This document shows positions 42,893 through 58,104 of a DNA stretch of 64,000 nucleotides, one piece after another. Made by a program: the position numbers and the translations under genes. Source of the stretch: Acuticoccus sediminis (lineage in GTDB: Bacteria; Pseudomonadota; Alphaproteobacteria; Rhizobiales; Amorphaceae). Every line of letters begins with the position of its first letter. The stretch's first letter is position 1. The DNA lies in contig NZ_QHHQ01000003.1 in the NCBI RefSeq assembly GCF_003258595.1, positions 434,001 to 498,000 on the forward strand. Reading direction: 5' to 3'. The notes below the pieces were generated by a model. The model saw only the letters and a list, made by a program, of their open reading frames with translations, ran no database searches and had not been told where the DNA came from.

Positions 42893-44086
42893 TCAGTGGA
42901 TGACGTTGCGATCGATGAGGTCGTCGATCGCGGCGCGGCCGAGGCCGAGGAGCTCGCCGAACACGTACTCCTCGTGCTCGCCGAGCCGGGGCGTGCCGCG
43001 CTCGAACGCCGGCTCGTCGCAGGCCGAGAAGCGCGCCGGGCGGCCGATGGCGGCACGCACCGCCCCGCCGGACTCGGTCACGTCGACGATGGCGCCGCGC
43101 CCGCGAAGGTGCGCGTCCGCGGCGATATCCTCCGTGCTCCAGGAGATGTGCGCGGGCACGCCGGCCTCCTGAAGACGACGCACGGCCGTATCGGCGTCCT
43201 GGTGCGCGGACCAGGCGGCGACGATCCTGGCGAGCGCCTCGCGGTTGGCATGGCGGTCGGCCTCGGTCTCGAACTGCGGCGCGGCTGCGAGGTCGCGGCG
43301 GTCCATCACGGTGAGCAGCCCCCGCCACTGCGCCTGCGAGCCGACCGACAGGCTGAGCCAGCGGTCCTCGACGTCGGTCGGGAACAGGCCGTGCGGGGCG
43401 CGGCGATGGTCGTCGTTGCCGATCCGCTCGACGTAGCCGCCCGCGGCGGCCACCATCATCGTGTCGCCGACGATCGACGAGGCGACCTCGCGCGCGGCGA
43501 CGTCGACGTGCGCGCCGCGCCCGGTACGGCGGCGCTGATGCAGCGCGGCGACGGTCGCGGCGGCCGCATTCATCCCGACCGAGTGGTCCATGACGTGGCG
43601 CATCTCCACCGGCGGCCCGTCCGGGTAGCCCGTCAGGTAGCCGAGGCCGCCCCATGCGCCGAAGAGCGGCGCGTAGCCCGCGAAGTGGGAGTCCGGCCCG
43701 GTCTGGCCCGAGGACGAGATCGAGACCATCACGATGTCGGGTTTCACCCCCGCGAGCACGTCGTAGCCGAGGCCGAGGCGGGCCATGACGCCGGCGCGGA
43801 AGCTCTCCGCGGCGACGTCGGAGACCGCGACGAGGCGCTTGGCGAGCTCACGGCCCTCGGCGTCCTTGAGGTTGAGGCGGATGGAGAGCTTGTTGGACGC
43901 CACCTGGTCGAACGTGGCGGCGCCCGCGCGGCCGTAGACGGTGTGCGGCTTGCGGAAGATGTCCGGCCGCAACGCGGTCTCGATCTTGATGCATTCCGCG
44001 CCCATCAGCGAGAGCATGTGGGTGCAGAACGGCCCGGCCGCGTGGACGGTGAAGTCGGCGATCCGGATGCCTTCGAGGGGTCTCAT
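42893..44086 (-). CDS. Class III (CaiB/BaiF) CoA-transferase, catalytically complete subunit
   Basis: This 397-residue class III CoA-transferase has D167 in MDHSVGMNAAAATVAAL, the family's catalytic aspartate, followed by RTGRGAHVDVAARE. It moves CoA between a donor and an acid acceptor through an aspartyl-CoA intermediate. The ATG overlaps the stop of a second CaiB gene (ATGA), and that neighbour lacks the aspartate, so the two probably form a heteromeric enzyme. The likely substrate is the dicarboxylic acid processed by the adjacent hydratases and lyase. Confidence 0.87.
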   Translation of the reverse strand: MRPLEGIRIADFTVHAAGPFCTHMLSLMGAECIKIETALRPDIFRKPHTVYGRAGAATFDQVASNKLSIRLNLKDAEGRELAKRLVAVSDVAAESFRAGVMARLGLGYDVLAGVKPDIVMVSISSSGQTGPDSHFAGYAPLFGAWGGLGYLTGYPDGPPVEMRHVMDHSVGMNAAAATVAALHQRRRTGRGAHVDVAAREVASSIVGDTMMVAAAGGYVERIGNDDHRRAPHGLFPTDVEDRWLSLSVGSQAQWRGLLTVMDRRDLAAAPQFETEADRHANREALARIVAAWSAHQDADTAVRRLQEAGVPAHISWSTEDIAADAHLRGRGAIVDVTESGGAVRAAIGRPARFSACDEPAFERGTPRLGEHEEYVFGELLGLGRAAIDDLIDRNVIH

Positions 44087-45255
44087 GCGTTCACCTTGCG
44101 CGCCTCGCGGGGGCGCGAGCGCTCGAGGATCGCCTGGTCGGCGCCGAGCGCCGGAGGGGCGCGCCTCACCGCGAGGGGATCGGCGCCGAAGCGGAACGGC
44201 GCGGTCTGGATCGGCACCGGCCCGACGCCGGCAATGTCCACCTCGCCGAACAGGCGGCGCGCCTCCTCGTGCGGGTCGGAGAGGACGTCGGCCGGCGTGT
44301 TGTACGGGGCCATCGGCACGCCGAGGCGCTGGGCGCGCGCGACCAGCTCGGCGACCGGGTGCTCGCGTGCCCATGCCCGGATCCGCGCGTTGATGTCGGG
44401 TCCCCGGGCGCTGCGCGCCGCGGGATCGTCCATCCCGGGGCCACAGGCCCATTCGGGGCTGTCCATCAGCTCGACGAGGCCCTGCCACTGCCGCTCCTCG
44501 AGGGTGAGCAGCTCGACGAACCCGTCGCGGCACTCGATGACGCCGCCGTAGCGGAAGTTGCGCTCGTGGCGATGCTCGACCGACCCGTCGCCGAGGCGCT
44601 GGATGGCGAAGGCGCCGATGGCGACGTTCGCGTCCTGCACCGAGACGTCGACCGTCTGCCCCTCCCCCGACCAGAGCGCGGCGAGCGTCGCGAACAGCGC
44701 CGTCACGCCGCCCTGCATCTCGGCGAAGCGGCCGGCGATCTTGAGCGGCGGGCGGTCCGGGAAGAGGTCGACGGAGAGCCCGTTGGGAAGGAGATAGCCC
44801 TCCCCGCTGGCATGGATGAGGTTGATCTCCTCCCCCTGCCAGCCGGCCTTGGGGCCGAACGCCCCGAACGGCAGCACCGACGCGACGACGAGGTGCGGGT
44901 GCCCGCGGCGGAGCGCAGCCTCGTCGAGACCCAGCGCCGGGCGGGCGTCGACGGGCGTGTCGAACAGGAAGATGTCGGCGTCCGTGAGGAGCGCGGCGAG
45001 GTCGCGGCGGCCTTCGGGAGTGGCAAGGTCGAGGACGACGCTGCGCTTGTCCGCGCCGAGGTAGGAGAACAGCGCGCTCTGCAGCCCGTCGCCGTCGAGG
45101 TATGGGGGCTCGCGCCGGAGCGCGCACCCCTCGGGCGGTTCGATCATGGCGACCTCGGCGCCCATCGTGGCAAGGAGGCGTCCGGCATAGCCGGCGGCCA
45201 CGCCCTGGGCGCACTCCACCACCTTGATCCCGGCCAGCGGCCCGTCGGTCGACAT
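44083..45255 (-). CDS. Class III (CaiB/BaiF) CoA-transferase, subunit with Asp-to-Glu change
   Basis: This 390-residue CaiB-family protein aligns with its neighbour through the ATLAAL...GQTVDVSVQDA region, but the catalytic aspartate position is E179 (RFAEMQGG). In heteromeric class III enzymes such as benzylsuccinate CoA-transferase, one subunit lacks the active aspartate, so this is likely the non-catalytic partner rather than a decayed gene. Length and frame are intact. It follows the MaoC gene by 14 bp and overlaps the partner gene by 4 bp. Confidence 0.85.
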   Translation of the reverse strand: MSTDGPLAGIKVVECAQGVAAGYAGRLLATMGAEVAMIEPPEGCALRREPPYLDGDGLQSALFSYLGADKRSVVLDLATPEGRRDLAALLTDADIFLFDTPVDARPALGLDEAALRRGHPHLVVASVLPFGAFGPKAGWQGEEINLIHASGEGYLLPNGLSVDLFPDRPPLKIAGRFAEMQGGVTALFATLAALWSGEGQTVDVSVQDANVAIGAFAIQRLGDGSVEHRHERNFRYGGVIECRDGFVELLTLEERQWQGLVELMDSPEWACGPGMDDPAARSARGPDINARIRAWAREHPVAELVARAQRLGVPMAPYNTPADVLSDPHEEARRLFGEVDIAGVGPVPIQTAPFRFGADPLAVRRAPPALGADQAILERSRPREARKVNA

Positions 45256-45269
45256 GAAAGGGTCCTCCG

Positions 45270-46490
45270 TCAGCGCACGACGGGCAGTTCGAGATCGAGG
45301 CCGGCGCCGTCGAAGTGAACCGGGATGTTGGGATCGCGCGAGGGCAGGACGACCGTCGCAAGGCCCGGCGTCGTGATCTCGCCGCGCTGGTTCTCGCCCC
45401 AGATCTCGATGTCGACGAGGGCGTGGCGGTCCTTCATGTACTTCCGGGCGACCTTACCCTTGCACCAGGTGGAGTCGCCCATGGTGTTGAAGCGGCGCAT
45501 CTCCGTGCGGACGCGCTTCAGGAAGGCGGCATCGCCCATCCAGTTGGTGACGAGCGAAGCCATCCAGGCCGAGCGCTGCGGGCCGTAGTCGTAGACGCCC
45601 GGGACGCCGACTTCCTTGGCGGTCGATTCGCGGTGGTGTCCGATGCCGGTGTACTCGATACCGCCGCCCGCCTCCGGGTTCCGGAAGAAATGGCCCGGGT
45701 GCTTCATCGCCGCCTTGAACACGACGCCGTGGGTATGGCCGCGGCCGCAGCCGACGAGGAAGCCCATCGTGTCCATCAGCGACAGCGGCCCGCGCACGAT
45801 CGGCTCGAGCTCCTCGCCCTCGGTGACGTCCTCGAAGTACCGCACGTTGGCGCCGCGGATGTTGGCGTCCTCGCGCATGATCGCGTCGTCGAGCTTCTCG
45901 TACTCCTCCGGCGTGTACTCGTGGGTCTTGATGTCTTTGTACTTGCCGGCGTCGCGGGCGGCCTTGCGCTCGTGGCGGGTGCAGGTGCCGAGGGCGCGGG
46001 CGACGAGCTCGCCGCGCTGGTTGGTGTAGGTCGCCTCGACGTACTGGAGCACCAGGCGGCCGGAGAACTTCGACTGCTTCTCCTCGACGCCGACGACGCG
46101 CTCGATCGCGCTGATGCGGTCACCGGGGCGGATGTGGCGGAACAGCTCCCAGTCGTTGCCGGCGTAGAAGCCGTGCACGCCCGGCAAGCCCCAGCGCGTC
46201 CGGCCGACCCAGCCGAAGGCCATGGGGAACATCGGGTGCGCGACCTGACCGCCGTAGCGGGTCTGGCGGCCGTATTCGAGCTCGCGGTACAGCGGATTGA
46301 GGTCGCCGATCCCGTTGCACCAGTTGCGCAGCGTGTCGGTGGTGGCGTCCTGCAGGTAGGGGCCTTCCGGGCGGAGCTGCAGGCCGATCATGTCGCGCGC
46401 CTTGGCGATGGCCTCGTCGGTGATCTTGCCTTCGGCGGGGGCCGAGCCGACGTCGTGCTTGGGCTTTTCGGCCATGTCGAGCGTGGTCAA
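45270..46490 (-). CDS. MaoC / FAS1-like acyl-CoA dehydratase
   Basis: This protein of about 406 residues has two hot-dog domains; the N-terminal one contains the hydratase motif variant GDLNPLYRE (about residue 58), where tyrosine replaces the histidine of classic R-hydratases, as usual in the FAS1-like dehydratase group. It should hydrate or dehydrate an acyl-CoA intermediate. I prefer the TTG start at 46490 because AGAGGA lies 7 bases upstream; ATG 46475 (five residues shorter) lacks a ribosome binding site. It is the first gene of the operon continuing to two CoA-transferases, the HTD2 hydratase and the CitE lyase. Confidence 0.83.
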   Translation of the reverse strand: MTTLDMAEKPKHDVGSAPAEGKITDEAIAKARDMIGLQLRPEGPYLQDATTDTLRNWCNGIGDLNPLYRELEYGRQTRYGGQVAHPMFPMAFGWVGRTRWGLPGVHGFYAGNDWELFRHIRPGDRISAIERVVGVEEKQSKFSGRLVLQYVEATYTNQRGELVARALGTCTRHERKAARDAGKYKDIKTHEYTPEEYEKLDDAIMREDANIRGANVRYFEDVTEGEELEPIVRGPLSLMDTMGFLVGCGRGHTHGVVFKAAMKHPGHFFRNPEAGGGIEYTGIGHHRESTAKEVGVPGVYDYGPQRSAWMASLVTNWMGDAAFLKRVRTEMRRFNTMGDSTWCKGKVARKYMKDRHALVDIEIWGENQRGEITTPGLATVVLPSRDPNIPVHFDGAGLDLELPVVR

Positions 46491-46593: not shown

Positions 46594-46608
46594 AATGCAT
46601 TATGCATC
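46594..46608. promoter_or_regulatory. AATGCATTATGCATC, candidate operator of the MaoC-CaiB-CitE operon
   Basis: It matches the odd palindrome AATGCAT-N-ATGCATT at all arm positions but the last and lies about 104 bp upstream of the MaoC start, between consensus -35 and -10 hexamers. The perfect version recurs at 55508. Both arms are centred where a GntR-FCD dimer would bind. Confidence 0.6.
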
Positions 46609-46617
46609 AGACGTGTC

Positions 46618-46627
46618 AATGCATTAT
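46618..46627. promoter_or_regulatory. AATGCATTAT partial operator copy
   Basis: The first ten bases of the operator are repeated ten bases after the main site, overlapping the TTGACA hexamer of the minus-strand promoter candidate. A second weaker binding site would strengthen repression. Confidence 0.35.
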
Positions 46628-46709
46628 TTTCGAAAGCCTGCCGCTTCCTCGCCATCAGACTTATGGAATTCTGCGGAGATCCACGGACTCCACACACCGA
46701 CACCAAAAG

Positions 46710-46725
46710 AAAGAATGCATTCTTT
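46710..46725. promoter_or_regulatory. 16-bp palindrome AAAGAATGCATTCTTT
   Basis: A perfect 16-bp palindrome centred on the same ATGCAT core lies about 100 bp upstream of the main operator, at a distance suitable for a distal site. Confidence 0.4.
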
Positions 46726-46911
46726 TTGGGGATGTGAGCCCAGCATGGTGATGCTGGCCGACTCATCGGTGGTGGAAGGTGGCGAATGCCCCGCCGGTGA
46801 CGCCATTCGGGCCCGGGCGGGACCCCTTTCCGGCCGCCCGCTCCACCCGGACGGGACGCCGCCGGCCGGTGGGCCGTACCGGCAGGACGCCCCCGCCGGC
46901 ACCGCCCGGGA

Positions 46912-47490
46912 TCAGGTCTCGAAGTCGGCGGAGGTGGTGATCGCCGCGTAGCGCCTGAGGCCCGCGAGCGCGAACTCGTGCTCCTCGGTCGTCGCGCCGG
47001 CGCAGCAGTCCTCGAGGACCACGCAGGCATAGTCCCGGTCGTGCCCCTCGCGTACCGCCGCCGAGACGACGCCGTTGGTCGACACGCCCGTCAGGATCAG
47101 CCGCCCGATCCCCTGAGCCCGCAAAAGCGGCTCCAGCTTGGTGGCGTAGAAGGGACTGACACGGTGCTTGACGATGTCCGGGTCACCGTCCTTCGGGGCG
47201 AAGTCCTGGAAGACCTCCGTGCCCCAGGTGCCGAGCGTGAACACCTTGTTGTCGCGCGCCTTGGAGAATACCGGCGACTTCGGCGGGCACTCCGCGTAGC
47301 TCGGCGAGAAGCCGACGCGCACGTAGCCCACCATCATCCCCGCGGCCCTCGCCCGGTCGATCGCCCGCACGGTGTTGGCGTAGACGCCCCGCTCCCGGCA
47401 CTGCACCACGTAGGTCGAGGCGCCCATCCCGTCCGGGTGGACGAGGTCGTTCATCATGTCCATGACGAGCAGGATCGCGTTCGTCGTCAT
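46912..47490 (-). CDS. Isochorismatase-fold hydrolase lacking the usual nucleophilic cysteine
   Basis: This 192-residue protein of the isochorismatase superfamily has D11 (LLVMDMMND) and K108 (IVKHRVSPF) of the catalytic triad. The cysteine expected in a TNxCV motif is V141 (VSTNGVV). Family members with Cys are amidases or nicotinamidases; members without it are vinyl-ether hydrolases or unknown. The ATG at 47490 has GGAG upstream. It is the last gene of the LIV operon and follows the GntR gene by 79 bp. Function remains open. Confidence 0.82.
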   Translation of the reverse strand: MTTNAILLVMDMMNDLVHPDGMGASTYVVQCRERGVYANTVRAIDRARAAGMMVGYVRVGFSPSYAECPPKSPVFSKARDNKVFTLGTWGTEVFQDFAPKDGDPDIVKHRVSPFYATKLEPLLRAQGIGRLILTGVSTNGVVSAAVREGHDRDYACVVLEDCCAGATTEEHEFALAGLRRYAAITTSADFET

Positions 47491-47569
47491 CGAAGGCTCC
47501 AATGTTCGCGGAAAGTCGGCCGGCCCGCAGGCCGGAGTGCGCGCAGGGAGCCTTGCAGCGGGCCCGCCC

Positions 47570-48238
47570 CTAGGGGGCGTAGCTCGACTTGAACTCCTCC
47601 CAGCCCGCACGGATGTGCGTGCGAAGGGCCGCGATCATCGCGGCCTCGTCGCGCGAGATGATCGCGCTCAGCATCTCCCGGTGCTCGTCCGACGCGCGGT
47701 CGATCCGGTTCTCCACCTTGTTGATCAGGTCGAACGGGTAGCGCGCCCAGAGCGTGCGCACGAACCGCAGCGTCAGCGGCAGGTCCGCCGCCATGTAGAT
47801 GAGCTCGTGGAAGCGGTAGTTGATGAGGCGCACCGCGTCCCGGTCGCCCCGTTCCGTCGCCGCCTCGATGTCCTTCTGCAGCGAGACCAGCTCGTCGATG
47901 TGGCTCTGCTCCAGCTTGCCGAGCGCCTTCAGCGCCAACTTGCACTCGAGCGTCACGCGCAGGTCGACGATCTCCTCGGTCGAGTTGATGTCGAACTCGG
48001 CCACCACCGCGCCCTTGTGCGAGGAGGCGTGGACGAAGCCCTCCGCGTCGAGCAGCTTGATCGCCTCGCGTACCGGCGTGATGCTGGTCCCCAGGGTCGC
48101 TGCGATCTCGGCCTGCTTCAGCTTCGAGCCGCGCGGCAGGCGACCGGAGATGATGCCTTCGCGCAGATAGTCCGCGACCCATTCCTCCTTCGTACGATGC
48201 ATCGTGCGTTCGTTTCCCTCGTGACGAACGCTCCTCAT
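47570..48238 (-). CDS. GntR family transcriptional regulator, FCD subfamily
   Basis: This 222-residue FCD-type GntR repressor has its winged helix around residues 30-78 (LKQAEIAATLGTSITPVREAIKLL) and an FCD domain after residue 85. GGAG eight bases before ATG 48238 supports this start; an alternative in-frame ATG (48202, MHRTKEEW) would lie inside an ATGCAT palindrome. It is encoded in the minus-strand operon that begins with the LIV binding protein. Its likely targets are the AATGCATT-type sites at 46.6 and 55.5 kb, thus its own operon as well. The effector is presumably the imported acid or its CoA derivative. Confidence 0.88.
   Translation of the reverse strand: MRSVRHEGNERTMHRTKEEWVADYLREGIISGRLPRGSKLKQAEIAATLGTSITPVREAIKLLDAEGFVHASSHKGAVVAEFDINSTEEIVDLRVTLECKLALKALGKLEQSHIDELVSLQKDIEAATERGDRDAVRLINYRFHELIYMAADLPLTLRFVRTLWARYPFDLINKVENRIDRASDEHREMLSAIISRDEAAMIAALRTHIRAGWEEFKSSYAP
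48194..48205. promoter_or_regulatory. 12-bp palindrome ACGATGCATCGT inside the GntR gene start
   Basis: A perfect palindrome with the ATGCAT core lies about 12 codons into the regulator gene and covers an alternative ATG. It shares the core of the operators in the two promoter regions and could be an internal autoregulatory site, or a chance match within coding sequence. Confidence 0.3.
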
Positions 48239-48271
48239 AACCCGAACTCCGCTCCAAGGTGCAGTCCATCG

Positions 48272-49110
48272 TCATGCACGTCCCCCTCCGCCTTGCGTGA
48301 CGGGGGCGAGGTCGACGCGCACGACCTTCCCCTGAAGGTCGGGCCGGGACGCCGGATAGCGGGTGACGACGAGGGGGTCGTGCGCCGGCACGACGTGGTC
48401 GTCGCTCGGCGCCAGCGCGCGGATCGTGTCGTGCGAGGCGATCATGTCGGTCGAGTTGAAGACGACCGAGAACGGCACCCCGCGTTCGTACTCCTCGTAG
48501 TAATGCAGTGCATCGGAGGCGAGGACGACTGTGCCGCGCGCGGTCCGGACGCAGACGATCTCCTGCCCCGCCGCATGTCCGCCCACCCAGTGGACGGTCA
48601 CGCCGTCGGCGATGGTCCGCTCGCGGCCGTGGAGCGTGAGGCGCCCCGCATGGAGGAGCTGTACCAGGGCGACGATCTCGTCCACCTCGTAGGCGCGGCG
48701 GAACCAGCGCTTTTCCATGTACGGCCCGGTGATCGCGGCCATCTCCTCGGCCTGCATGTGGAAGTGCGCATTGGCAAACGCGGCGAGGTGGCCGAGGTGG
48801 TCGTAGTGGGCGTGGGTGAGCACGACCGTCTCCACCCGCTCCGGGTCGACGCCGAGCCCGCGCAGCGCCTCCACCGGATCGAGCAGCATCGTGTGGCCGT
48901 GATGGCGGGCCTTCTCGGGGTTCATGCCGGTGTCGACGACGATCGGCCCATCCGGCCCGATCAGGACCCAGCAGTAGAAGTCCATCGGCAGGATGTCGGT
49001 GGGACGGGCCTCCAGGATGAAGCTCTGCCCGCGCGTGCGCGTCTCGTTGACGGCGTAGCGGATGGCGTGGATCTCGTAGGTGGCGGGGGCGGTCATCGGT
49101 TCGGTATCCG

Positions 49111-49114
<4 letters not shown>
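48272..49114 (-). CDS. Metallo-beta-lactamase-fold lactonase-like hydrolase
   Basis: This 280-residue MBL protein has THAHYDHLGH (HxHxDH) near residue 100, a second-site GGHAAGQ histidine near residue 179 and D in LASDAL near residue 197. The layout follows N-acyl-homoserine-lactone lactonases of the AttM/AiiA group, but catabolic lactonases share it. It overlaps the LivF stop by 4 bp and precedes the GntR gene by 33 bp. A role in opening a lactone formed from the imported substrate is plausible. Confidence 0.82.
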
Positions 49115-49837
<723 letters not shown>

Positions 49838-49845
<8 letters not shown>

Positions 49846-50614
49846 CGTCGGTCCCCAGGTAGATGCGCTGGACATCCGGATCCTGTCGGATGACATCCGG
49901 AGGACCGCACGCGACGAACTCGCCGAAGTTGAGGACGTAGATCCGGTCGCAGATGGACATGACGAGGTCCATGTCGTGCTCGACCACGACCATCACGAGG
50001 TTCGGCGCCGCAAGGCTCCTGAGGGCCCGCGTAAGGTCGCGCGTCTCGGCGTTGTTGAGCCCCGCGGCGGGCTCGTCGAGGAGGAGGACGGACGGCTTGC
50101 CGGCGATGGCACGGGCGATCTCGACCAGGCGCTGGGTGCCGGGCGGAACCTCCGTGGGATAGCGCTCGGCGACGCCGTCGAGGCCGAGCTCGGCGAGCGC
50201 TGCCATCGCCCTGAGGCGCATGTCGGCGCACTCCCGCCGACCGCGGGGCAGCGGCAGGAAGGCCGAGAGCCAGCCGGCGTGATAGTCGCGGGCGAGGCCC
50301 AGCATGACGTTCTCGACCACCGTGAGGTCGGGACAGAGGGCGACCGTCTGGAACGAGCGCACGACGCCCTTCTCAGCCCGCCGCGCGGGCGGCAGCCCGT
50401 CGAGCGGATCGCCGGCGTAGCGGATCGAGCCCTGTGTCGGCCGGTAGGCCCCGGTGAGACAGTTGAAGAGGCTCGTCTTGCCGGCGCCGTTGGGCCCGAT
50501 CAGGCCGGTGATCTCACCGGGCCGGAACTCGACGTCGAGGCCCTTCAAGACCTTGATGCCGCCGAAGGAGAGCGACACGCCCTCCCCGACCAGCGCATGG
50601 TTCGTCGCGTCCAT
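49838..50614 (-). CDS. livG: LIV-type ABC transporter ATP-binding protein LivG (second system)
   Basis: This 258-residue ATPase has Walker A GPNGAGKTS and Walker B LLLDEPAAGLN. The signature region reads VPPGTQRLVEIARA, where PPGTQ replaces the usual LSYG(E/D)Q, a variation seen in some LivG proteins. It overlaps livM by one base (TGATG) and livF by 8 bp. The C-terminal LivG extension is present. Confidence 0.88.
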
Positions 50615-51597
50615 CAGACGCCTCCCGGACGGCGCCGCACCAGCGCGCCGAGGCGCGGCGCGAAGTGAGCGGCGAGAATGACGGCGAGCAGCGCCACCCC
50701 GTACATCACCGGGATCCACGCTCCGGACGCTGAGAGGAGCTGCGGCACGATGGTGAGGAAGGCGCCGCCGATGAGAGCGCGCGGCAGGGTGAGTCCGTAG
50801 ACGCTCACCACCGAGCCGACGAGCAGGAAGATCGACGTCCACAAGGTGTAGCCGCTCGGCGAGACGGTGGAGCTGGCGAAGGCGAGGACGGATCCCGCGA
50901 GCGCCGCGATACCGCAGCTCACCCCCATGACGGCGATCCGGGCCCAGACGCGTCGCGTTCCGAAGGCGTCGGCCGCCGCGGGGTGCGTGCGGGCGAGCAG
51001 CATCGCCATCCCCTGCCGCGACCGGCGCAGCTGGGACAGCGCGTAGGCGACCGCCACCAGCGCCACCAGCGGCACGTAGTAGCGCTGCAGTCCCATGTCG
51101 GCGCCGGGGATCACCGGCTTGGCGACGTAGAGCCCCTGGTAGCCGCCGGTGAAGTCGGACGCGTTGTTGATCAGCTCCGGCAGCGCCAGCGCCAGCGCCA
51201 TCGTCGAGACGGCGAGGTAGATGCCGGAGATGTTGCGCGAGGGAAAGGCGAAGGCGATCCCGAGGAGCACCCCGAGCGCGACGCCCACGGGCAGCGACAG
51301 GACGACCGAGACGCCGAGCCGCTGTTCGAGAATCGCGACCGAATAGGCGCCGACCGCGGCGAAGAAGCCGTGCCCGATCGAGACCTCGCCGCCGTAGCGC
51401 ACCAGGACGCTGACCGAGAGCACCGCGATGGAATTCGCGAAGGTGACGCCGAGCGCGTAGGTCCACGAGCCCTTCAGTACGAACGGGACAGCCGCGAGCG
51501 CGAGGACGAGGACCACCGTCCCCGCCCGCATCGCGAGCGCACCCGCGGGCATCGGCAGCGGGCTCCCGGCGGAGGTGGGGGCGAGCGCGTCAGACAC
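50614..51597 (-). CDS. livM: LIV-type ABC transporter permease LivM (second system)
   Basis: This 327-residue membrane protein has about nine hydrophobic segments. LivM features include LSVLVRYGGEVSIGHGFFAAVGAY near residues 61-84 and the AAADAFGTRR loop near residue 207. A 20-residue N-terminal leader precedes the first helix. Overlaps livH by 8 bp. Confidence 0.88.
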   Translation of the reverse strand: MSDALAPTSAGSPLPMPAGALAMRAGTVVLVLALAAVPFVLKGSWTYALGVTFANSIAVLSVSVLVRYGGEVSIGHGFFAAVGAYSVAILEQRLGVSVVLSLPVGVALGVLLGIAFAFPSRNISGIYLAVSTMALALALPELINNASDFTGGYQGLYVAKPVIPGADMGLQRYYVPLVALVAVAYALSQLRRSRQGMAMLLARTHPAAADAFGTRRVWARIAVMGVSCGIAALAGSVLAFASSTVSPSGYTLWTSIFLLVGSVVSVYGLTLPRALIGGAFLTIVPQLLSASGAWIPVMYGVALLAVILAAHFAPRLGALVRRRPGGV

Positions 51598-52492
51598 GGG
51601 ACCCGCTCACGGTCGCGAGGATCCCGTTCGGGAAGACGTTCAGCGCCGCGAGGATGACGACGAGCAGGAAGGTGCTCGAGTATTCCGGCGAGACGTAGAA
51701 GGTGAAGAGGTTCATGAGGATCCCGATCATGATGCCGCCGATGAGGCTGCCGGGGAGACTCGCGAAGCCGCCCACCACGGCCGCCGCGAAGGCCTGCAGC
51801 ATGAAGGCGGCGACGGTTGTGGCGCTGAGGAAGGTCGTCGGCACGATGAGAAGCGCGCCCACCACGCCGAGCCCTGCCGCGACGACCCACGCGAAGACGT
51901 GGACCCGGCGCAGGTTCAGCCCGCACACCTCCGCCGCGAACGGGTTGGAGGAGATCGCCCTGAAGGCGATGCCGAGCTTGGTGTGGTCGATCACGAAGAA
52001 CAGCGTGCCGATGGTGACGACCGCGACCGACAGCACGGTAAGGTCGTAGCCGGTGATCCTGAGGCCGAGGAGCGAGGTGGAGAAGCGCGGGACCGGGAGG
52101 TCGAGGCTGACGATGTCCGCGCCGAAGACGAGCAGCGTGGCGCCCTGGATGATGAGGCCGACGCCGAGTGTCGCGATGGTGGCCGTGAGGTCGGATTCGG
52201 CGATCAGCGGCGAGATCAGCGCGTAGGTGAGGAAGGCGATCGCCACGACGCAGACGACCGCGAGCAGCACCGCCGTCCCCCACGAGAGCGACATCAGCGC
52301 CCCCGACGAGAAGCCGTAGACCAGGAAGGCGGCGAACCCGGCGACGTTGCCGTGCGAGAAGTTCACGACGCGCGAGCACTTGAAGATCATCACGAGCCCC
52401 AGAGCGCCGAGCGCGTAGAGGCATCCGGTGACGATCCCCGACCAGACCAGCGGGAAGAGGTCGTAGGCGAGGCTGTCGAGGAAGCCGCTCAC
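51590..52492 (-). CDS. livH: LIV-type ABC transporter permease LivH (second system)
   Basis: This 300-residue membrane protein has eight or so hydrophobic segments and LivH landmarks (SGIVTGCLYALGALGLVMIF, VVNFSHGNVAGFAAF, FAAAVVGGFASLPGSLIGG). The start is a GTG overlapping the HIBADH stop (GTGA). The longer open frame upstream is an antisense-free shadow of the dehydrogenase gene in another frame. Confidence 0.88.
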   Translation of the reverse strand: MSGFLDSLAYDLFPLVWSGIVTGCLYALGALGLVMIFKCSRVVNFSHGNVAGFAAFLVYGFSSGALMSLSWGTAVLLAVVCVVAIAFLTYALISPLIAESDLTATIATLGVGLIIQGATLLVFGADIVSLDLPVPRFSTSLLGLRITGYDLTVLSVAVVTIGTLFFVIDHTKLGIAFRAISSNPFAAEVCGLNLRRVHVFAWVVAAGLGVVGALLIVPTTFLSATTVAAFMLQAFAAAVVGGFASLPGSLIGGIMIGILMNLFTFYVSPEYSSTFLLVVILAALNVFPNGILATVSGSRV

Positions 52493-53418
52493 TCCGCCGC
52501 CTCCGACGCGCCCGTCCCGGCGCCCTCCTCGTCCGCGAACGCGCCCTCCTCCACAAGGCGGATGACGCCCGGGAAGTAGCGGCCGGACAGATCGGTGCCG
52601 ACCGCGCGCTCGTAGTACTTGCGGACGGTCTCGGCCGCGCGGATCGGCACACCCGTCTCGCGCGCCAGCTCGAAGACGTAGTCCATGTCCTTGAGGACGT
52701 ACTCGGGCGGGAAGGACCTGTCCGGGAACTGGCGCGGCAACATCGCCTTGCGGCCGTGGTTGCGCAGCACGAAGCTGTCGCCGGAGCCCTTGGAGACGGC
52801 CTCGAGCATCGTCTCGCCGGAGACGCCCGCCCGCTCGGCGAGCACCATCATCTCGGCGAGCGTCACGACGTTCTCGAACACGAGCATGTTGTTGACGAGC
52901 TTCAGGACCTGGCCCGCGCCGACGTCGCCGCCATGAGTGATGTCCGTCGCCATGTAGGCGAGCAGCGGCTCGATGCGGGCGAAGACGTCCGGCGCCGCGC
53001 CCACCATGATGGAGAGCGCCCCTTTCTGTGCCGCCTCGCGGGTGCGGGCGACCGGCGCGTCGGCAAAGCCGATGGCCTTCTCGCCGAGCGCGGCACCCAC
53101 CTTGCGGGCGACCGCAACGGGGGTGGTGGAGAGGTCGACCACCGTCGTGCCGGCGCGGGCGGCGCCCGCGACTGGGCCGAGCGCCACCGCCTCCACCTGC
53201 GGCCCGCCCGGCAGCGACATGAAGACGACGTCGGCCCGGGCGGCGAGGTCCTCGACGCTGCCGACCGGCTCGGCCTTGGTGTCCGATAGGGCGGCGACGG
53301 CCTCGGCGGAGAGGTCGAAGGCGAGGACATCGCCGGCATGCTTCGTCGCGACGTTGCGGCACATGGGGCCGCCCATGACGCCGAGGCCGATGAAACCGAT
53401 GGTGGGGTTGGCGCTCAT
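52489..53418 (-). CDS. NAD(P)-dependent beta-hydroxyacid dehydrogenase (HIBADH family)
   Basis: This 309-residue enzyme has the N-terminal Rossmann motif GFIGLGVMGGPM and the substrate-binding lysine in GAGQVLKLVNN near residue 172. The family covers 3-hydroxyisobutyrate, tartronate-semialdehyde and related beta-hydroxyacid dehydrogenases. It lies 4 bp after the SDR gene and overlaps livH by GTGA, so it is embedded inside the transporter operon. It probably oxidises a hydroxy acid intermediate of the imported compound. Confidence 0.87.
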   Translation of the reverse strand: MSANPTIGFIGLGVMGGPMCRNVATKHAGDVLAFDLSAEAVAALSDTKAEPVGSVEDLAARADVVFMSLPGGPQVEAVALGPVAGAARAGTTVVDLSTTPVAVARKVGAALGEKAIGFADAPVARTREAAQKGALSIMVGAAPDVFARIEPLLAYMATDITHGGDVGAGQVLKLVNNMLVFENVVTLAEMMVLAERAGVSGETMLEAVSKGSGDSFVLRNHGRKAMLPRQFPDRSFPPEYVLKDMDYVFELARETGVPIRAAETVRKYYERAVGTDLSGRYFPGVIRLVEEGAFADEEGAGTGASEAAE

Positions 53419-53422
53419 CGTG

Positions 53423-54172
53423 TCAGTCCATCAACATTCCGCCGTTCACATCGAGAACGGTGCCGGTGATCCAGTTGGATTGGGGCGAGCAGAGGAAGAG
53501 GATCGCCTGGGCGATGTCTTCCGGCTGGCCGTAGCGGCCGAGGGGGACGCTGCCGTTGGGTGACGGGGCGGCGCGCTGCGTCACCGTCTGCCACATCGGG
53601 GTCTCCACCGGGCCGGGCGCGACGATGCTGGCGTAGACGCCCCTGGCCGCGCCCGCCTTCGCCACCCACTTCATCAGCCCGTGGACGGCCGACTTCGCGG
53701 CGACGTAGGACGGGCCGGACGCGACGCCGCCGATCTTGGCCGCGATCGAGCCGAGGGCGACGATCTTGCCGTAGCCCTGCTCGCACATCACTGGAAACAG
53801 CGCGCGGACCGGGTGGACGACACCCATCAGGTTGACGTCGAGGATCGCCTTCCACTCCTCGTCCGTGCTCTCGGCGAGCGGACGGTGGCTGATCGTCCCG
53901 GCGCACAGGATGAGGACGTCGATCCTGCCGTGTTCCTCGGCGATCCCTTTGACCAACGCATCGGTCTCGGCGATCGAGGTCACGTCGTAGCGGCGGTAGT
54001 GGACGCCGCTGTGCCCGAAGTCGACGGCGTCGGTGATGTCGGTCCCGATCACCGTGGCGCCGGCTTCGGCGAGCGCGAGGCAGGTGGCCTTGCCGATCCC
54101 TCCGGCTGCGCCCGTGACGAGGGCGATCTGTCCATCGAGGCGCGGCGGCGCGCTCAGGGGGTGGAGCGTCAT
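53423..54172 (-). CDS. Short-chain dehydrogenase/reductase
   Basis: This 249-residue classical SDR has TGAAGGIG for NAD(P) binding near residue 20, the CAGT motif near residue 90 and the catalytic SYVAAK (Tyr-x-x-x-Lys) near residue 160, with the serine in LGSIAAK. Asp in TDIT after beta-2 suggests NAD preference. GGAG precedes the ATG. It is the second gene of the operon after the binding protein and likely oxidises a secondary alcohol. Confidence 0.88.
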   Translation of the reverse strand: MTLHPLSAPPRLDGQIALVTGAAGGIGKATCLALAEAGATVIGTDITDAVDFGHSGVHYRRYDVTSIAETDALVKGIAEEHGRIDVLILCAGTISHRPLAESTDEEWKAILDVNLMGVVHPVRALFPVMCEQGYGKIVALGSIAAKIGGVASGPSYVAAKSAVHGLMKWVAKAGAARGVYASIVAPGPVETPMWQTVTQRAAPSPNGSVPLGRYGQPEDIAQAILFLCSPQSNWITGTVLDVNGGMLMD

Positions 54173-54222
54173 GGAGTTCTCCGGTTGAGGCGGCGTCCCG
54201 GGCGGGGGACGCCGCCGACGTG

Positions 54223-55437
54223 TCAGTTGGCTGGGAGTTCGAAGACGACGTCCGGGTAGGGCCGGAATTCCTTGACGAGGACGAACTTGCCGTCCTGCGC
54301 CTGGATGATGCCCTCCTGGCGCGTGCCCCGGTGGTCGCCCGGCTTGAACGTCACGCTCTGGGCCCCGCCCACGGTGGCGCCGTCGAGCGTCTCGAGCGCG
54401 GCGAGGAGATTCTCGCGGGTGAGCTCGTTGCCGCTGTCGAGAAGGGCCTTGAAGCCGGCCGCGAAGACCGCCGCGTTGCTCCAGCCGTTGAGGCCGAAGA
54501 CGCCGACCGGGTCGTCCGGGTAGTATTCCTGGATCGCGTCGCGGTAGTCGGCGACGCCGGGCTCGTCGGCCGACACCGGAAGCAGCCAGGACGAGAAGTA
54601 GACGCCGTTGAGGAGGTCGCCCGCGAGCTTGAAGGTCGACGGGTCGGCCGCGAAGAACGGCGCGAACCACTTGACGTCGAGGCCCTGGAGATCGGCTGCC
54701 TTCAGCGCCGCGGCGAGGTTGGCGTTGGAGCCGAAGAGGATCACCGCCTCCGCGCCGGAGTTGGCGATGCGGCGGATGTGCGGGGAGAAGTTGGTCGTCT
54801 TGACGTCGAAGGAGACCGACTCGGCGGGCTCAAGCTTCAGCTCTTCCATGTAGCGGTCGAAGCCGCGCTTGGCGGAGCGGCCGAGCTCGTCGTTCTCCCA
54901 CAGGAGGGCGACCTTGGAGAGGCCGAGGTCGTGGACCGCGTAGTCCACGTTGGAGGCCGCCGACCAGCCGTATTCGGGCAGCAGCGGAAAGATGTTCGGC
55001 TCGACGAAGAAGGCGCTGGCGCCGCCGATGGGGCTGACCATCGGCAGGCCCACTTCCTTCGCGTACGGGATCACGGCGACGTTGGTGGCGGTGCCGACGG
55101 CGGCGGACAGGGCGAAGATGCCGTCGTCGTCGACCATCTGGCGGGTGACGGCGACGCTGCGCGCCGGGTCGTAGCCGTCGTCGGCGGTGACGTATTTCAC
55201 CGTCCAGCCGTCGATGCCGCCGGCTTCGTTCAGGTGCCGGTAGTAGGCGTCGGCGGCGTGGGTCAGGATGGCGTAGAACGGTACCGGGCCGGTGATCGGC
55301 GTGAAGGCGCCGATGGTGACCGTCTTGCTCGCCTCGTCGATGCCGGGGTCCTGTGCGGTGGCGATGGTGACGCCGGCGAGGAGCGCGGCGACGGTCGCGG
55401 CCGGCAAGGCCCACTGCTTGGCTGTACGAAGTCGCAC
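54223..55437 (-). CDS. livJ: LIV-type ABC transporter periplasmic binding protein (second system)
   Basis: This 404-residue protein has a signal peptide (ALPAATVAALLAGVTIATA) and a Peripla_BP_6 fold. The GTG at 55437 is preferred because GGGAGG lies 7 bases upstream; a TTG five codons earlier would overlap the ribosome binding site. It is the first gene of a ten-gene minus-strand operon (binding protein, SDR, HIBADH, LivHMGF, MBL, GntR, isochorismatase-fold). The perfect AATGCATTATGCATT site lies 71 bp upstream. Confidence 0.88.
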   Translation of the reverse strand: MRLRTAKQWALPAATVAALLAGVTIATAQDPGIDEASKTVTIGAFTPITGPVPFYAILTHAADAYYRHLNEAGGIDGWTVKYVTADDGYDPARSVAVTRQMVDDDGIFALSAAVGTATNVAVIPYAKEVGLPMVSPIGGASAFFVEPNIFPLLPEYGWSAASNVDYAVHDLGLSKVALLWENDELGRSAKRGFDRYMEELKLEPAESVSFDVKTTNFSPHIRRIANSGAEAVILFGSNANLAAALKAADLQGLDVKWFAPFFAADPSTFKLAGDLLNGVYFSSWLLPVSADEPGVADYRDAIQEYYPDDPVGVFGLNGWSNAAVFAAGFKALLDSGNELTRENLLAALETLDGATVGGAQSVTFKPGDHRGTRQEGIIQAQDGKFVLVKEFRPYPDVVFELPAN

Positions 55438-55507
55438 CCCAAGTCCTCCCAATGTTTTGTTATCTGCCGGGAGGGTATGGGCAGGCGGTTTTCTCCGTCA
55501 AGAGAAT

Positions 55508-55522
55508 AATGCATTATGCATT
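55508..55522. promoter_or_regulatory. AATGCATTATGCATT, perfect odd palindrome, candidate GntR operator
   Basis: Both 7-bp arms are perfectly complementary around one base. The site matches 14 of 15 positions at 46594, nearly 9 kb away. It lies 71 bp upstream of the LIV operon start and in the same gap as the CaiB/TAXI start, so one protein could control both divergent units. Confidence 0.65.
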
Positions 55523-55601
55523 GAGTTAGCGACCGCCGGATTCAGCCGCAGCGCCCGGAAGAGCGCGAAAAACCGCCTGATCGGTCGGTAGTTCGGCCTA
55601 C

Positions 55602-55609
55602 AATGCATT
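55602..55609. promoter_or_regulatory. AATGCATT additional core site
   Basis: The same self-complementary 8-mer recurs 94 bp from the perfect operator, nearer the plus-strand start. Confidence 0.35.
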
Positions 55610-55755
55610 TCATGAGCGGCACATACGGCGGATATCTGCGGATATTCGCCAACATCACCTGCAATGAAGTGAAATGGCATTCGCCTGTTGAGCTTGAAAA
55701 TGGATTGTGCATTTTATGAGGACGAACGCACATGCCATCATTGAAGGACTGACAC

Positions 55756-56982
55756 ATGGTGCCTGGGATCCTCGCCGGCCGCACCGTGCTCGAGCTCGGC
55801 AGTATGATTGCCGCCCCGTTCGCGGCCCATATCCTCAGCCAGCTCGGCGCGGAGGTGATCAAGATCGAGCCGCCGTCCGGTGACACCACGCGCAAGCTCG
55901 TCCGCGGCGGTCCCAGCGGCACCTACATCGCCTACAGCCGCGGCAAGAAGAGCATCTGCCTCGACCTGCGCTCGCCAGAGGGCCAGACGATCCTCGACAC
56001 CCTCATCGCCGGTGCCGACATCGTCGTCCACAACCTCTCGCCCGGTGCCGCCCGCCGGCTCGGCATGACCTACGAGCGCTGCGCCGCCCAAACACCCGGC
56101 ATCGTCTACTGCCACATCAAGGGCTACGGCCCGGGGCCGCTCGCCGAGGAGGTCGCCTCCAATCCCATCGCAGAGGCCGCGACCGGGGTCATGTACTCCA
56201 ACCGGGTGGACGGTCGTCCGTCCCGCCTCGGCCCCTCCTACCACGACCAGTTCGCCGGCTCGTATGCGGTGATCGCCATCCTTGGCGCGCTCCTTGCGGG
56301 CGAGGACCAGCCCGAGCGCCGCAACCTTGAGCTCGGCCTCTACGAGACCGGGCTGCACGTCGCCGCCCGCGATCTCGTCGGGGTCCAGCTGAAGTCCCAG
56401 CTCCTCGGCCGGCCCGAGCAGGAGCCCTCCCCCGAGTTCTCCATTCCCGGCTACGGCGCCTACGAGACGGCGGACGGGCGCTGGATCTACCTCGTCATGC
56501 TGACGGACGAGCACTGGAACCGCTTCTGCCGCGCCGCCGGTCTCCCGTCGGACCCGGCGCTGGCGACGCTGCGCCAGCGCCGCCGCGAGCGCGACGCCGT
56601 TGAGGCGAGCGTGCGCGAGGCGGTCGGCGCCGTCACCTACGACGATCTCGCCGCCCGGCTGAGCGCGGCAGGCGTCGGCCACACCGAGGTCCTCTCCGCG
56701 GACCGCGTCCTCGACGCGCCCCAGGCGAAGGACCCGAAGAAGTACGCCGAGTTCGCCTTCGCCGGATACCACTTCGCCTCGCCCGATCTGCCGCTCCCGG
56801 CGTCCACGGGCGAGGCCGAGCCGCTCCTCCCGCCGCCGCTCCTGGGCGAGCACACCGAGGAGCTGCTGGCCCGGCGCGGCTACGGCGCGGCCGAGATCGC
56901 CGCCCTCGTCGCCTCCGGCGCCGCCCACGTGAGCGACCCGGCCGACGAACTCTGGGCTCGCCCCGCCAAGGCCGCGGAGTGA
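55756..56982 (+). CDS. Class III (CaiB/BaiF) CoA-transferase
   Basis: This 408-residue class III CoA-transferase has the catalytic aspartate at D164 (SYHDQFAG) and N-terminal GRTVLELGSMIAAPFAAHILSQ typical of the family. GAAGGA lies seven bases before the ATG. It is the first gene of a plus-strand operon with a TAXI-TRAP transporter, so it probably activates the imported acid to its CoA thioester. Third CaiB member in the window; unlike the 44-45 kb copy it keeps the catalytic residue. Confidence 0.87.
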   Translation: MVPGILAGRTVLELGSMIAAPFAAHILSQLGAEVIKIEPPSGDTTRKLVRGGPSGTYIAYSRGKKSICLDLRSPEGQTILDTLIAGADIVVHNLSPGAARRLGMTYERCAAQTPGIVYCHIKGYGPGPLAEEVASNPIAEAATGVMYSNRVDGRPSRLGPSYHDQFAGSYAVIAILGALLAGEDQPERRNLELGLYETGLHVAARDLVGVQLKSQLLGRPEQEPSPEFSIPGYGAYETADGRWIYLVMLTDEHWNRFCRAAGLPSDPALATLRQRRRERDAVEASVREAVGAVTYDDLAARLSAAGVGHTEVLSADRVLDAPQAKDPKKYAEFAFAGYHFASPDLPLPASTGEAEPLLPPPLLGEHTEELLARRGYGAAEIAALVASGAAHVSDPADELWARPAKAAE

Positions 56983-57129: not shown

Positions 57130-58104
57130 ATGAAGACCCTCATCGCGACCGTCGCCGCGACGGCGATCGCCGCCGGCATCGGAACCGCAGGCGTCGCGCA
57201 CGCCGACACCGATCTCCTGTTCGGCTCCACCTCCGCCTCGTCGAGCCACTACGGCTACATCGTCGCCGTCGGCCAGATCCTGAACGAGAAGGTCGACGGG
57301 GTCCGCGCCAACGTCGTCGAGACCGGCGCCGCGCTCGACAACATCCGCCGCATGGAACGCGGCCAGATGGACCTCGGCATCATCACCACCAACGTCGCCC
57401 AGCACGCCGTCGCGGGGACGGACGAGTTCGAGGGCCGGCCGCAGGACCTGCGCCTCCTATGGGTCTACACCGGCGCGCCGCAGAATGTCGTCGTGCGCAA
57501 GGATTCCGGCATCACCTCGCTGGAGGACCTCAAGGGCGCGCGTTTCAACCCGGGCATCCGCGGCTCGGCGACCGAATCGACCACCGAGGCGGTCTTCGAC
57601 ACGCTCGGCCTCACCGCTGACTACGTGCGCGGCTCGACCACGGACATGGCCGACGCCATCAAGGACAACCGAGTCGCCGGCTACGTGAAGTCCGGCAACG
57701 GCAACAAGATCGACGCGTCCACCATGGACATCGCCACCTTCACCGACATCGCCATCCTCGGCCTCGACGCGGCCCAGGCCGAAAAGCTGCGCGCCGAGAT
57801 GCCGGACGTGTCGATCATCGACGTGCCCGCGGGCGCGGCGGACGGCGTACCGGCCTACACGACCTGGAGCTTCGGCGTCGGCGTCGGCACCACGGCGGGG
57901 ATGTCGGACGAGGTCGCCTACCAGATCGTCAAGGCGGTGATGGAGAACAAGGACGCCCAGGCGAACGCCATGGCCTCCATCAAGGAGAGCGACCTCGCCG
58001 AGCTGACGATGCAATACGGCACGATCCCGCTCCACCCGGGCGCCGCGCGCTACTTCAAGGAGAAGGGCGTCGCCATCCCTGAAAAGCTCCTGCCGACCGA
58101 GTAG
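57130..58104 (+). CDS. TAXI family TRAP transporter solute-binding protein
   Basis: This 324-residue protein has a signal peptide (ATAIAAGIGTAGVAHA, cleaved near AHA) and the TAXI-family fold: FGSTSASSSHYGYIVAVGQIL, GALDNIRRMERGQMDLGI, and LKGARFNPGIRGSATE. GGGAGG occurs upstream of the ATG. TAXI proteins feed dicarboxylates, amino acids or related acids to fused TRAP permeases, encoded 4 bp downstream. Confidence 0.9.
   Translation: MKTLIATVAATAIAAGIGTAGVAHADTDLLFGSTSASSSHYGYIVAVGQILNEKVDGVRANVVETGAALDNIRRMERGQMDLGIITTNVAQHAVAGTDEFEGRPQDLRLLWVYTGAPQNVVVRKDSGITSLEDLKGARFNPGIRGSATESTTEAVFDTLGLTADYVRGSTTDMADAIKDNRVAGYVKSGNGNKIDASTMDIATFTDIAILGLDAAQAEKLRAEMPDVSIIDVPAGAADGVPAYTTWSFGVGVGTTAGMSDEVAYQIVKAVMENKDAQANAMASIKESDLAELTMQYGTIPLHPGAARYFKEKGVAIPEKLLPTE

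What the first reader, a model, noticed from the sequence alone, without database searches (positions are those of the whole stretch)
46594..55755. Shared AATGCAT-N-ATGCATT operator defines a candidate three-unit GntR regulon
AATGCATTATGCATT is perfect at 55508-55522 and present with 14 of 15 matches at 46594-46608, the only two large non-coding gaps in the 41-60 kb block. More AATGCATT cores occur at 46618, 46714 (inside a 16-bp palindrome) and 55602, and an ATGCAT palindrome covers the alternative start of the block's own GntR gene (48194-48205). One FCD repressor could thus control the MaoC-CaiB-CaiB-HTD2-CitE operon, the LIV-SDR-HIBADH-MBL-GntR operon and the CaiB-TAXI-TRAP operon. I know of no described system with this gene set.
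Basis: partly seen in the sequence, partly recalled or inferred. Interest (0 to 1): 0.78.

Follow-up and report, generated by a model that had tools for sequence, protein, structure and literature searches.

The report
GntR switch for C5-acid breakdown island
A short mirror-image DNA signal sits in front of the gene groups of a conserved acid-breakdown island in many related bacteria and is very probably the binding site of the repressor encoded in that island, which appears to read an unusual DNA word for its protein family.

Summary
AATGCATNATGCATT occurs in the 7.76-Mb own genome at ≤1 mismatch only at the two stated places. The LIV-to-hydratase gene order recurs in 17 of 19 loci, window included. 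AATGCATT lies in 35 of 36 orthologous gaps (shuffle mean 0.67, maximum 4) and 4 times in 423 kb outside. In 18 island-bearing genomes the 15-mer at ≤1 mismatch has 16 places, 15 in the island. Sites keep a near-fixed distance to TTGAC. The best candidate binder is the island's FCD GntR. Its FadR Arg-45 equivalent is Ile in 22 of 22 clade entries. The refined operator, TGCA-N3-TGCA, keeps FadR-type box spacing but lacks the GT/AC letters (21 in the three junctions, 2 in 421 kb elsewhere). The enzymes include relatives of itaconyl-CoA hydratase and, more weakly, of the itaconate lyase RipC, so the inducer may be a C5 dicarboxylate or its lactone. Most loci were found through GntR itself, so its linkage is partly by construction. 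Binding, repression and inducer are inferred, not shown.

The parts
55508..55522 (.). operator AATGCATTATGCATT (TGCA-N3-TGCA) of the LIV promoter; on the - strand TTGAC starts 10 bp 3' of the octamer centre
55602..55609 (.). AATGCATT core in the divergent gap
55699..55713 (.). CaiB3-proximal operator AATGGATTGTGCATT; the same 15 letters stand in the same-genus genome G004
46594..46608 (.). operator AATGCATTATGCATC of the MaoC promoter; TTGAC starts 22 bp 5' of the octamer centre on the - strand
46618..46625 (.). second AATGCATT core in the MaoC gap, overlapping the TTGAC on the - strand
46714..46721 (.). third AATGCATT core in the MaoC gap, inside AAAGAATGCATTCTTT
48194..48205 (.). ACGATGCATCGT at the GntR start; weak candidate autoregulatory site (CGCA-N3-TGCA form in the window and in G002 and G004), overlaps Met-His codons
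47570..48238 (-). GntR-FCD regulator (222 aa; start codon uncertain, orthologue matches begin at query residues 1-14)
46912..47493 (-). isochorismatase-family hydrolase, next after GntR
48272..49114 (-). metallo-beta-lactamase-fold protein; resembles AHL lactonases but far below their curated cut-offs
49111..49845 (-). LivF-like ABC ATPase (named from the sequence; not scanned against Pfam; start assumed)
49838..50614 (-). LivG-like ABC ATPase (named from the sequence; not scanned against Pfam; start assumed)
50614..51597 (-). LivM-like permease (named from the sequence; not scanned against Pfam)
51590..52492 (-). LivH-like permease (named from the sequence; not scanned against Pfam; start assumed)
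52489..53418 (-). 3-hydroxyisobutyrate dehydrogenase family protein
53423..54169 (-). short-chain dehydrogenase (SDR)
54223..55452 (-). LIV-type periplasmic binding protein
45270..46475 (-). MaoC/FAS1_DH-type hydratase-dehydratase (start assumed)
44083..45255 (-). class III CoA-transferase CaiB2
42893..44086 (-). class III CoA-transferase CaiB1 (best solved relative: benzylsuccinate CoA-transferase subunit)
42022..42879 (-). itaconyl-CoA hydratase relative (PDB 8khg, E 4.9e-75)
41228..42016 (-). CitE-type lyase; nearest solved chain 8khl 'probable acyl-CoA lyase beta chain' (E 3.9e-52), best NCBIfam model RipC below cut-off
55756..56982 (+). class III CoA-transferase CaiB3
57130..58104 (+). 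TAXI-type binding protein (NMT1_3)
58109..59968 (+). TRAP fused permease (named from the sequence; not scanned against Pfam)

Best explanation
Bound there it covers the core promoters of the LIV-transporter/dehydrogenase/lactonase-like/GntR/isochorismatase unit, the divergent CaiB-TAXI-TRAP unit and the MaoC-CaiB-CaiB-hydratase-lyase unit. A C5 branched dicarboxylate of the itaconate type, its CoA ester or a lactone of it, binds the FCD pocket and releases the repressor, so that transport and breakdown are switched on together. Shown here: site positions, conservation, confinement, near-fixed promoter geometry, linkage, changed recognition helix. Inferred: binding, repression rather than activation, inducer, pathway.
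For: AATGCATT in 16 of 17 LIV gaps and 19 of 19 MaoC gaps; 61 copies in 10,245 bases against 4 in 423,442 outside; the next palindromic octamer reaches 4 of 36 gaps, so the flanks are not conserved. 15 of 16 places of the 15-mer (<=1 mismatch) in 18 island-bearing genomes lie in the island; reversed-pattern control 0 in all 18. TGCA-N3-TGCA: 21 in the three junctions (11.8 kb), 2 in 421 kb elsewhere; the next commonest spacers there have 4 each. TTGAC starts 20-22 bp before an octamer centre in 18 of 19 MaoC gaps and 9-10 bp after it in 11 of 17 LIV gaps, as expected for blocking a promoter. Of the window's two regulator genes searched for in the loci, GntR is in all and LysR found one 27% match. 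Seven of 297 relatives have a MaoC of at least 85% identity, the window's genome counted, and all 7 have a clade GntR beside it. Ile stands at the FadR Arg-45 position in 22 of 22 entries of at least 50% identity and in 0 of 24 paralogues below 42% (15 of 24 have Arg); of the 8 entries in between, 6 have Ile and 2 Ala. Rearranged islands with a 50-53% GntR still carry sites (L094 before MaoC, L162 between GntR and LIVbp, L135 and L137 before GntR and LIVbp), and a 45-46% GntR beside other CaiB genes has AATGCATT 53 bp before the match start in two genomes. Three FCD His residues are invariant in 30 of 30 entries. Enzyme relatives.
Against: No binding or expression data. Most loci were found with the GntR protein, so their GntR content proves nothing; other regulators in those loci were not searched for; no island without this GntR was found, so the cleanest control is missing. 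4 of 9 remote clade loci (L152, L153, L163, L164) have no exact AATGCATT in the 18 kb read; L153 has Ala instead of Ile, the other three carry the same helix motif. One LIV gap (G004) has only inexact forms. The 15-mer at <=1 mismatch is in 11 of 18 island-bearing genomes. 13 of the 18 AATGCATT copies of the own genome lie outside the island. The sigma-70 scan called neither TTGAC box of the window. HTD2 hits no NCBIfam model and CitE is below cut-off; CitE was not found beside the island in 5 of 19 loci, so the pathway and substrate are uncertain.
Confidence: 0.83

Rival explanations
1. The sites are real operators, but of another, unlinked transcription factor; GntR only happens to be a neighbour.
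For: No binding data; loci were mostly found through GntR. 13 of the 18 AATGCATT copies of the own genome lie outside the island, and two of these have a TTGAC nearby, starting 8 bp after and 18 bp before the octamer centre.
Against: Islands found through MaoC instead of GntR also hold this GntR (7 of 7). The site follows remote members of the GntR clade into differently ordered gene sets (5 of 9). The clade's recognition helix lacks the Arg that reads G and the site lacks GT. 1 copy in 74.5 kb around 21 paralogous GntR genes.
Confidence: 0.08
2. GntR binds the sites but acts as an activator or dual regulator instead of a plain repressor.
For: The LIV site lies just upstream of TTGAC (centre 9-10 bp 5' of it in 11 of 17), which could also suit activation; FadR itself is annotated as a dual regulator.
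Against: In the MaoC promoter the site lies between TTGAC and where the -10 box should be (18 of 19), a blocking position; 24 of 36 gaps have two or more octamers.
Confidence: 0.12
3. AATGCATT is an A+T-rich promoter part or DNA-bending element conserved for transcription itself.
For: Near-fixed distance to TTGAC.
Against: The two promoters have it on opposite sides of TTGAC; the letters are exact and palindromic; it occurs only 18 times in 7.76 Mb, so it is not a general promoter part.
Confidence: 0.03
4. Chance coincidence in A+T-rich gaps.
For: Such letters are easier to find in low-GC gaps; 48 of 150 relatives hold at least one place of the 15-mer at <=1 mismatch somewhere.
Against: 1000 dinucleotide shuffles reach at most 4 of 36 gaps, observed 35.
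Confidence: 0.005

Closest known systems
FadR/FCD subfamily of GntR regulators and their operators (TKGT-N3-ACMA; Suvorova et al. 2015, PMC4494728: sections 5, 10, 17 read, other passages seen)
   Same: GntR HTH plus FCD domain; regulator gene inside the controlled gene set; palindromic A/T-rich operator; the two 4-bp boxes are 7 bp apart centre to centre, as in TKGT-N3-ACMA; that paper describes extra weaker half-sites at 7-12 nt, and TGCA boxes at 7-bp steps are seen here.
   Different: The box is TGCA, self-complementary, without the GT/AC pair; the FadR Arg-45 position is Ile and the Arg-35 position Ala, Thr or Gln. The paper's main text holds no ATGCAT; its supplementary spreadsheets were not open to me.
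[quoted passage not shown] PMC12290011: abstract, outline and one passage seen)
   Same: Relative of the hydratase (8khg), a CitE-type lyase whose best NCBIfam model is RipC, and class III CoA-transferases in one operon.
   Different: The acyl-CoA dehydrogenase and MmgE/PrpD genes named in that abstract are not among the island genes listed (not searched for as such). Added here: LIV ABC and TAXI-TRAP transporters, SDR, HIBADH, MBL, isochorismatase, a 401-aa MaoC and a third CaiB. The itaconate-responsive regulator RipR is LysR-type (PMC9637912; title and start of abstract in the listing only), not GntR.
NanR and BioR (GntR regulators with non-consensus operators, direct repeats TGGTATAW and TTATMKATAA, as named in PMC4494728 section 10)
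   Same: Precedent that GntR proteins can leave the GT/AC consensus and use repeats.
   Different: Different box letters; no TGCA box.

Membership tests
GntR family, FCD (FadR-type) subfamily | N-terminal GntR HTH and C-terminal FCD domain | tested here: met
   PF00392 54.3 bits and PF07729 72.2 bits, both above the curated cut-off
GntR family, FCD (FadR-type) subfamily | conserved FCD histidines | tested here: met
   His144, His186 and His208 in 30 of 30 entries, 25 of them distinct; that these are metal ligands is recalled
FadR-type operator | two boxes with the 3-nt (or 2-nt) spacing | tested here: met
   spacer 3 is by far the commonest between TGCA boxes: 21 in the three junctions against 2 in 421 kb elsewhere
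FadR-type operator | TKGT/ACMA box letters | tested here: not met
   boxes read TGCA; AATGCATT holds no GT or AC
FadR-type operator | specific binding by the regulator | not testable with these tools
   needs EMSA or footprint
Itaconate degradation cluster | itaconyl-CoA hydratase relative | tested here: met
   8khg_A, E 4.9e-75, residues 12-283 of 285
Itaconate degradation cluster | (S)-citramalyl-CoA lyase Ccl/RipC as an NCBIfam equivalog | tested here: not met
   NF038242 160.7 bits, cut-off 375
Itaconate degradation cluster | lyase gene present in each island | tested here: not met
   CitE of at least 51% identity follows HTD2 in 14 of 19 loci; L080 has a 38% one elsewhere; none found in the stretches read of G004, G002, G099 and L094
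Itaconate degradation cluster | growth on or turnover of itaconate | not testable with these tools
   needs enzyme assays or growth tests

The most novel reading that the evidence does not exclude
A clade of FCD-GntR repressors has swapped the conserved base-reading arginine of its recognition helix for isoleucine and with it the DNA word from TKGT/ACMA to the self-complementary box TGCA, keeping the 7-bp box spacing. Because each box is itself symmetric, a dimer can pair a box with a neighbour on either side, which would explain single AATGCATT sites, the 15-mer and three-box 7-bp arrays alike. The clade controls a conserved, undescribed alphaproteobacterial island for import and breakdown of an itaconate-like C5 acid or lactone.
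Probability: 0.5. Interest if true: 0.62.

Novelty: new variant of a known kind. Interest (0 to 1): 0.52.

Why it matters
It gives a testable DNA-recognition change inside one of the large bacterial regulator families, with the amino-acid change and the operator change both seen across species. It also proposes a regulator, an operator and a probable C5-dicarboxylate role for a conserved island of about 14 to 18 genes in many alphaproteobacteria, and offers a candidate sensor for itaconate-type acids outside the LysR family.

Tried and rejected
Chance origin: rejected by shuffles. The LysR gene at 40275-41204 as the regulator: rejected, it found one 27% match in the other island stretches. AATGCATT as a plain even palindrome and only unit: considered, then revised because spacer-3 TGCA pairs are enriched and match FadR box spacing. 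A wider regulon in the own genome: of the 13 AATGCATT copies outside the island (contexts), two have TTGAC nearby. G000:C9:266163, before an NMT1/SsuA-like ABC operon, has it 8 bp after the centre, against 9-10 in the LIV gaps; its orthologue in G005, which has no MaoC match at E 1e-60 and only a 43% GntR, reads AATGAATT. G000:C2:1279512, before a class-V aminotransferase gene and near another FCD-GntR gene, has it 18 bp before the centre, against 20-22 in the MaoC gaps, and lies in a longer, different inverted repeat. Both left open. G000:C4:165890 lies before a GNAT gene; left open. The off-island 15-mer in Rhodobium (G153:C183:17965) is in no clear promoter, by eye. A class-wide search for more clade members gave 2 further genomes of 385. 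Papers (PMC open-licence library): the listings showed no GntR regulator of an itaconate cluster; one search showed no GntR operator of the form TGCATNATGCA, and in its one paper holding both 'GntR' and 'AATGCATT' (PMC11784139, passages seen) the letters are primers. Three papers were opened in all (PMC4494728, PMC12290011, PMC11784139); the rest are known to me from listings only. No structure prediction was run.

Rows dropped before counts: L079 (same as L070), L074 (same as L083) and L095 (22% identity). Gap bounds were set by hand from the match ends. The 22 entries hold one repeat (L074/L083); the 30 hold five (also L014/L152, L015/L150, L016/L151, L017/L153).
Full report
Observation. The 15-mer AATGCATNATGCATT is at 55508-55522 (perfect) and 46594-46608 (one mismatch); a two-mismatch form is at 55699-55713. 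AATGCATT occurs five times in the window, all in the two gaps. The own genome (7,759,911 bases, 44 contigs) has only the two stated places at ≤1 mismatch and eight at ≤2, three of the eight in the island. AATGCATT itself occurs 18 times, five of them here. TGCATNATGCA occurs four times, two here.

Genes. Pfam identifies GntR+FCD, isochorismatase, a metallo-beta-lactamase fold, LIV binding protein, HIBADH, SDR, MaoC/FAS1_DH, CoA-transferase III and a TAXI-type protein. HTD2 matches itaconyl-CoA hydratase over nearly its whole length (E 4.9e-75). CitE matches 8khl, named a probable acyl-CoA lyase beta chain (E 3.9e-52), and NCBIfam's RipC model below its cut-off. CaiB1 is nearest to a benzylsuccinate CoA-transferase subunit. 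The gene order on the minus strand is LIVbp-SDR-HIBADH-LivH-LivM-LivG-LivF-MBL-GntR-isochorismatase, gap, MaoC-CaiB2-CaiB1-HTD2-CitE; CaiB3-TAXI-TRAP diverge from LIVbp.

Comparative set. A scan of genome contigs with the GntR protein gave 17 loci, 16 of them good relatives (50-83% identity); G004 and G099 came from whole-genome searches. After removing repeats, 19 distinct loci including the window were used, 17 of which hold the LIV gap. By their record titles they come from Acuticoccus, Rhizobium and its kin, Azospirillum, Rhodobium, Jiella, Sulfitobacter, Salipiger and others. LIVbp to HTD2 runs in the same order in 17 of 19; L093 is cut by its contig end and L094 is rearranged. CaiB3 diverges from LIVbp in 16 of 17; in L082 it follows CitE. 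CitE of at least 51% identity follows HTD2 in 14 of 19. TAXI-TRAP follows CitE in L084, L086, L090 and L091 and lies beside CaiB3 in the window and G002; in the other loci I did not see both beside the island in the stretch read. Because searched with GntR, its presence in those loci is by construction. As an independent look, the MaoC protein at E ≤1e-60 hit 12 of 297 relatives, the window's genome counted; the 7 with at least 85% identity all have a GntR of this clade beside it, the other 5 (35-39%) were not examined.

Conservation. AATGCATT is in 16 of 17 LIV gaps and 19 of 19 MaoC gaps, two or more times in 24 of the 36. It has 61 copies in 10,245 bases against 4 in 423,442 bases of the rest of the loci. 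Shuffles reach a mean of 0.67 and at most 4 of 36 gaps (1000 shuffles). The next palindromic octamer reaches 4 gaps, and the 15 commonest octamers are all shifted forms of the site or its flanks, so the gaps are otherwise diverged.

Confinement. In 18 whole genomes that hold the island (G000, G002, G004, G099 and those of 14 loci; L093 was not submitted) the 15-mer at ≤1 mismatch has 16 places. I placed 15 of them in the island from the locus coordinates; the exception is G153:C183:17965. The reversed-pattern control gave 0 in all 18. Seven of the 18 genomes have no place at that threshold; six of these seven still have AATGCATT in both gaps, G004 in the MaoC gap only. In 150 relatives, most of them without a close GntR, 48 have at least one place at ≤1 mismatch, so single occurrences are not rare and the position carries the weight.

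Operator anatomy. TGCA pairs with a 3-nt spacer occur 11 times in LIV gaps (11 of 17 loci), 7 times before GntR (7 of 19) and 3 times in MaoC gaps (3 of 19), against 2 in 420,862 bases elsewhere. The next commonest spacers in the junctions, 8 and 12, have 4 each. Around the 61 octamers, TGCA at offset 7 occurs 13 times, and 1-4 times at the other offsets where it occurs. In two remote islands three TGCA boxes follow each other at 7-bp steps before GntR (L135, L137). In the FadR subfamily the boxes are TKGT-N3-ACMA in most groups (PMC4494728, section 10), also 7 bp centre to centre.

Promoter layout. In 18 of 19 MaoC gaps TTGAC begins 20-22 bp before an octamer centre; in 11 of 17 LIV gaps TTGAC begins 9-10 bp after one. 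These fit repression by covering the -10 region and the upstream edge of the -35 box. That TTGAC is the -35 box is inferred; the sigma-70 scan did not call it in the window.

Which protein. Of the window's two regulator genes, GntR is in every locus and LysR found one 27% match; other regulators were not searched for. Aligned with E. coli FadR, the window has Ala at Arg-35 and Ile at Arg-45. Ile holds in 22 of 22 entries of at least 50% identity and in 0 of 24 paralogues below 42%, of which 15 have Arg; of the 8 entries in between, 6 have Ile and 2 (one gene) Ala. An Arg of the recognition helix to G is the main base contact in FadR and AraR (PMC4494728, section 5). Of nine more distant clade loci, five have the site at GntR or at the associated operon (L135, L137, L150, L151, L162) and four do not (L152, L153, L163, L164). 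Around 21 paralogous GntR genes AATGCATT occurs once in 74.5 kb.

Pathway. An itaconate-like route (CoA transfer, hydration to citramalyl-CoA, cleavage) is the best guess from the hydratase and lyase relatives; the missing CitE in some loci weakens it, unless the lyase is encoded elsewhere. The lactonase-like MBL, HIBADH and SDR suggest that a lactone or hydroxymethyl acid such as paraconate/itamalate could enter upstream; this last step is speculation. The itaconate-responsive regulator RipR is LysR-type (PMC9637912, listing). Literature searches in the open-licence library listed no GntR regulator for such a cluster.

Verdict. It is a new variant of a known kind: an FCD-GntR local regulator with an altered recognition helix and box.

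Noticed in passing
L147 5064-5071 (G000:C9:266163-266170): AATGCATTTTTGTTGACA, nearly the layout of the LIV promoter, between a divergent fumarylacetoacetate-hydrolase-like ORF and an NMT1/SsuA-like ABC operon (names judged from the translated ORFs): possible further target in the own genome; the G005 orthologue reads AATGAATT.
   Followed up: partly
L138 5000-5026 (G000:C2:1279512): Inverted repeat GAATAATG-N4-CATTATTC just after TTGAC, upstream of a class-V aminotransferase gene; a second FCD-GntR gene lies at L138 1353-2033: perhaps another FCD operator.
   Followed up: partly
L168 1501-1511 (G000:C4:165890): Exact TGCATTATGCA shortly before the probable start of a GNAT acetyltransferase gene on the minus strand.
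   Followed up: partly
L090 16677-16962: In Arenibacterium halophilum the CitE-TAXI gap has its own TTGAC followed by TGATGCATCATGCTTGCA; the same gap in L084, L086 and L091 has no TGCA.
   Followed up: no
L135 13750-15700: In G263 about 2 kb of unidentified coding-looking DNA lies upstream of MaoC, with TGCA-N3-TGCA sites at 15576 and 15793; by eye it looks like a two-subunit CoA ligase, not searched.
   Followed up: no
L150 8061 and 9825; L151 8378 and 10379: A 45-46% identical GntR with the same SITPVREA helix sits beside other CaiB genes, with AATGCATT or GATGCATT before GntR and before the CaiB genes: perhaps a sister regulon.
   Followed up: partly
window 45270-46475: The 401-aa MaoC protein is among the most conserved of the island (82-94% identity to the window across the loci), yet its only solved-sequence match is a weak one (1q6w, E 3.5e-5).
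   Followed up: no
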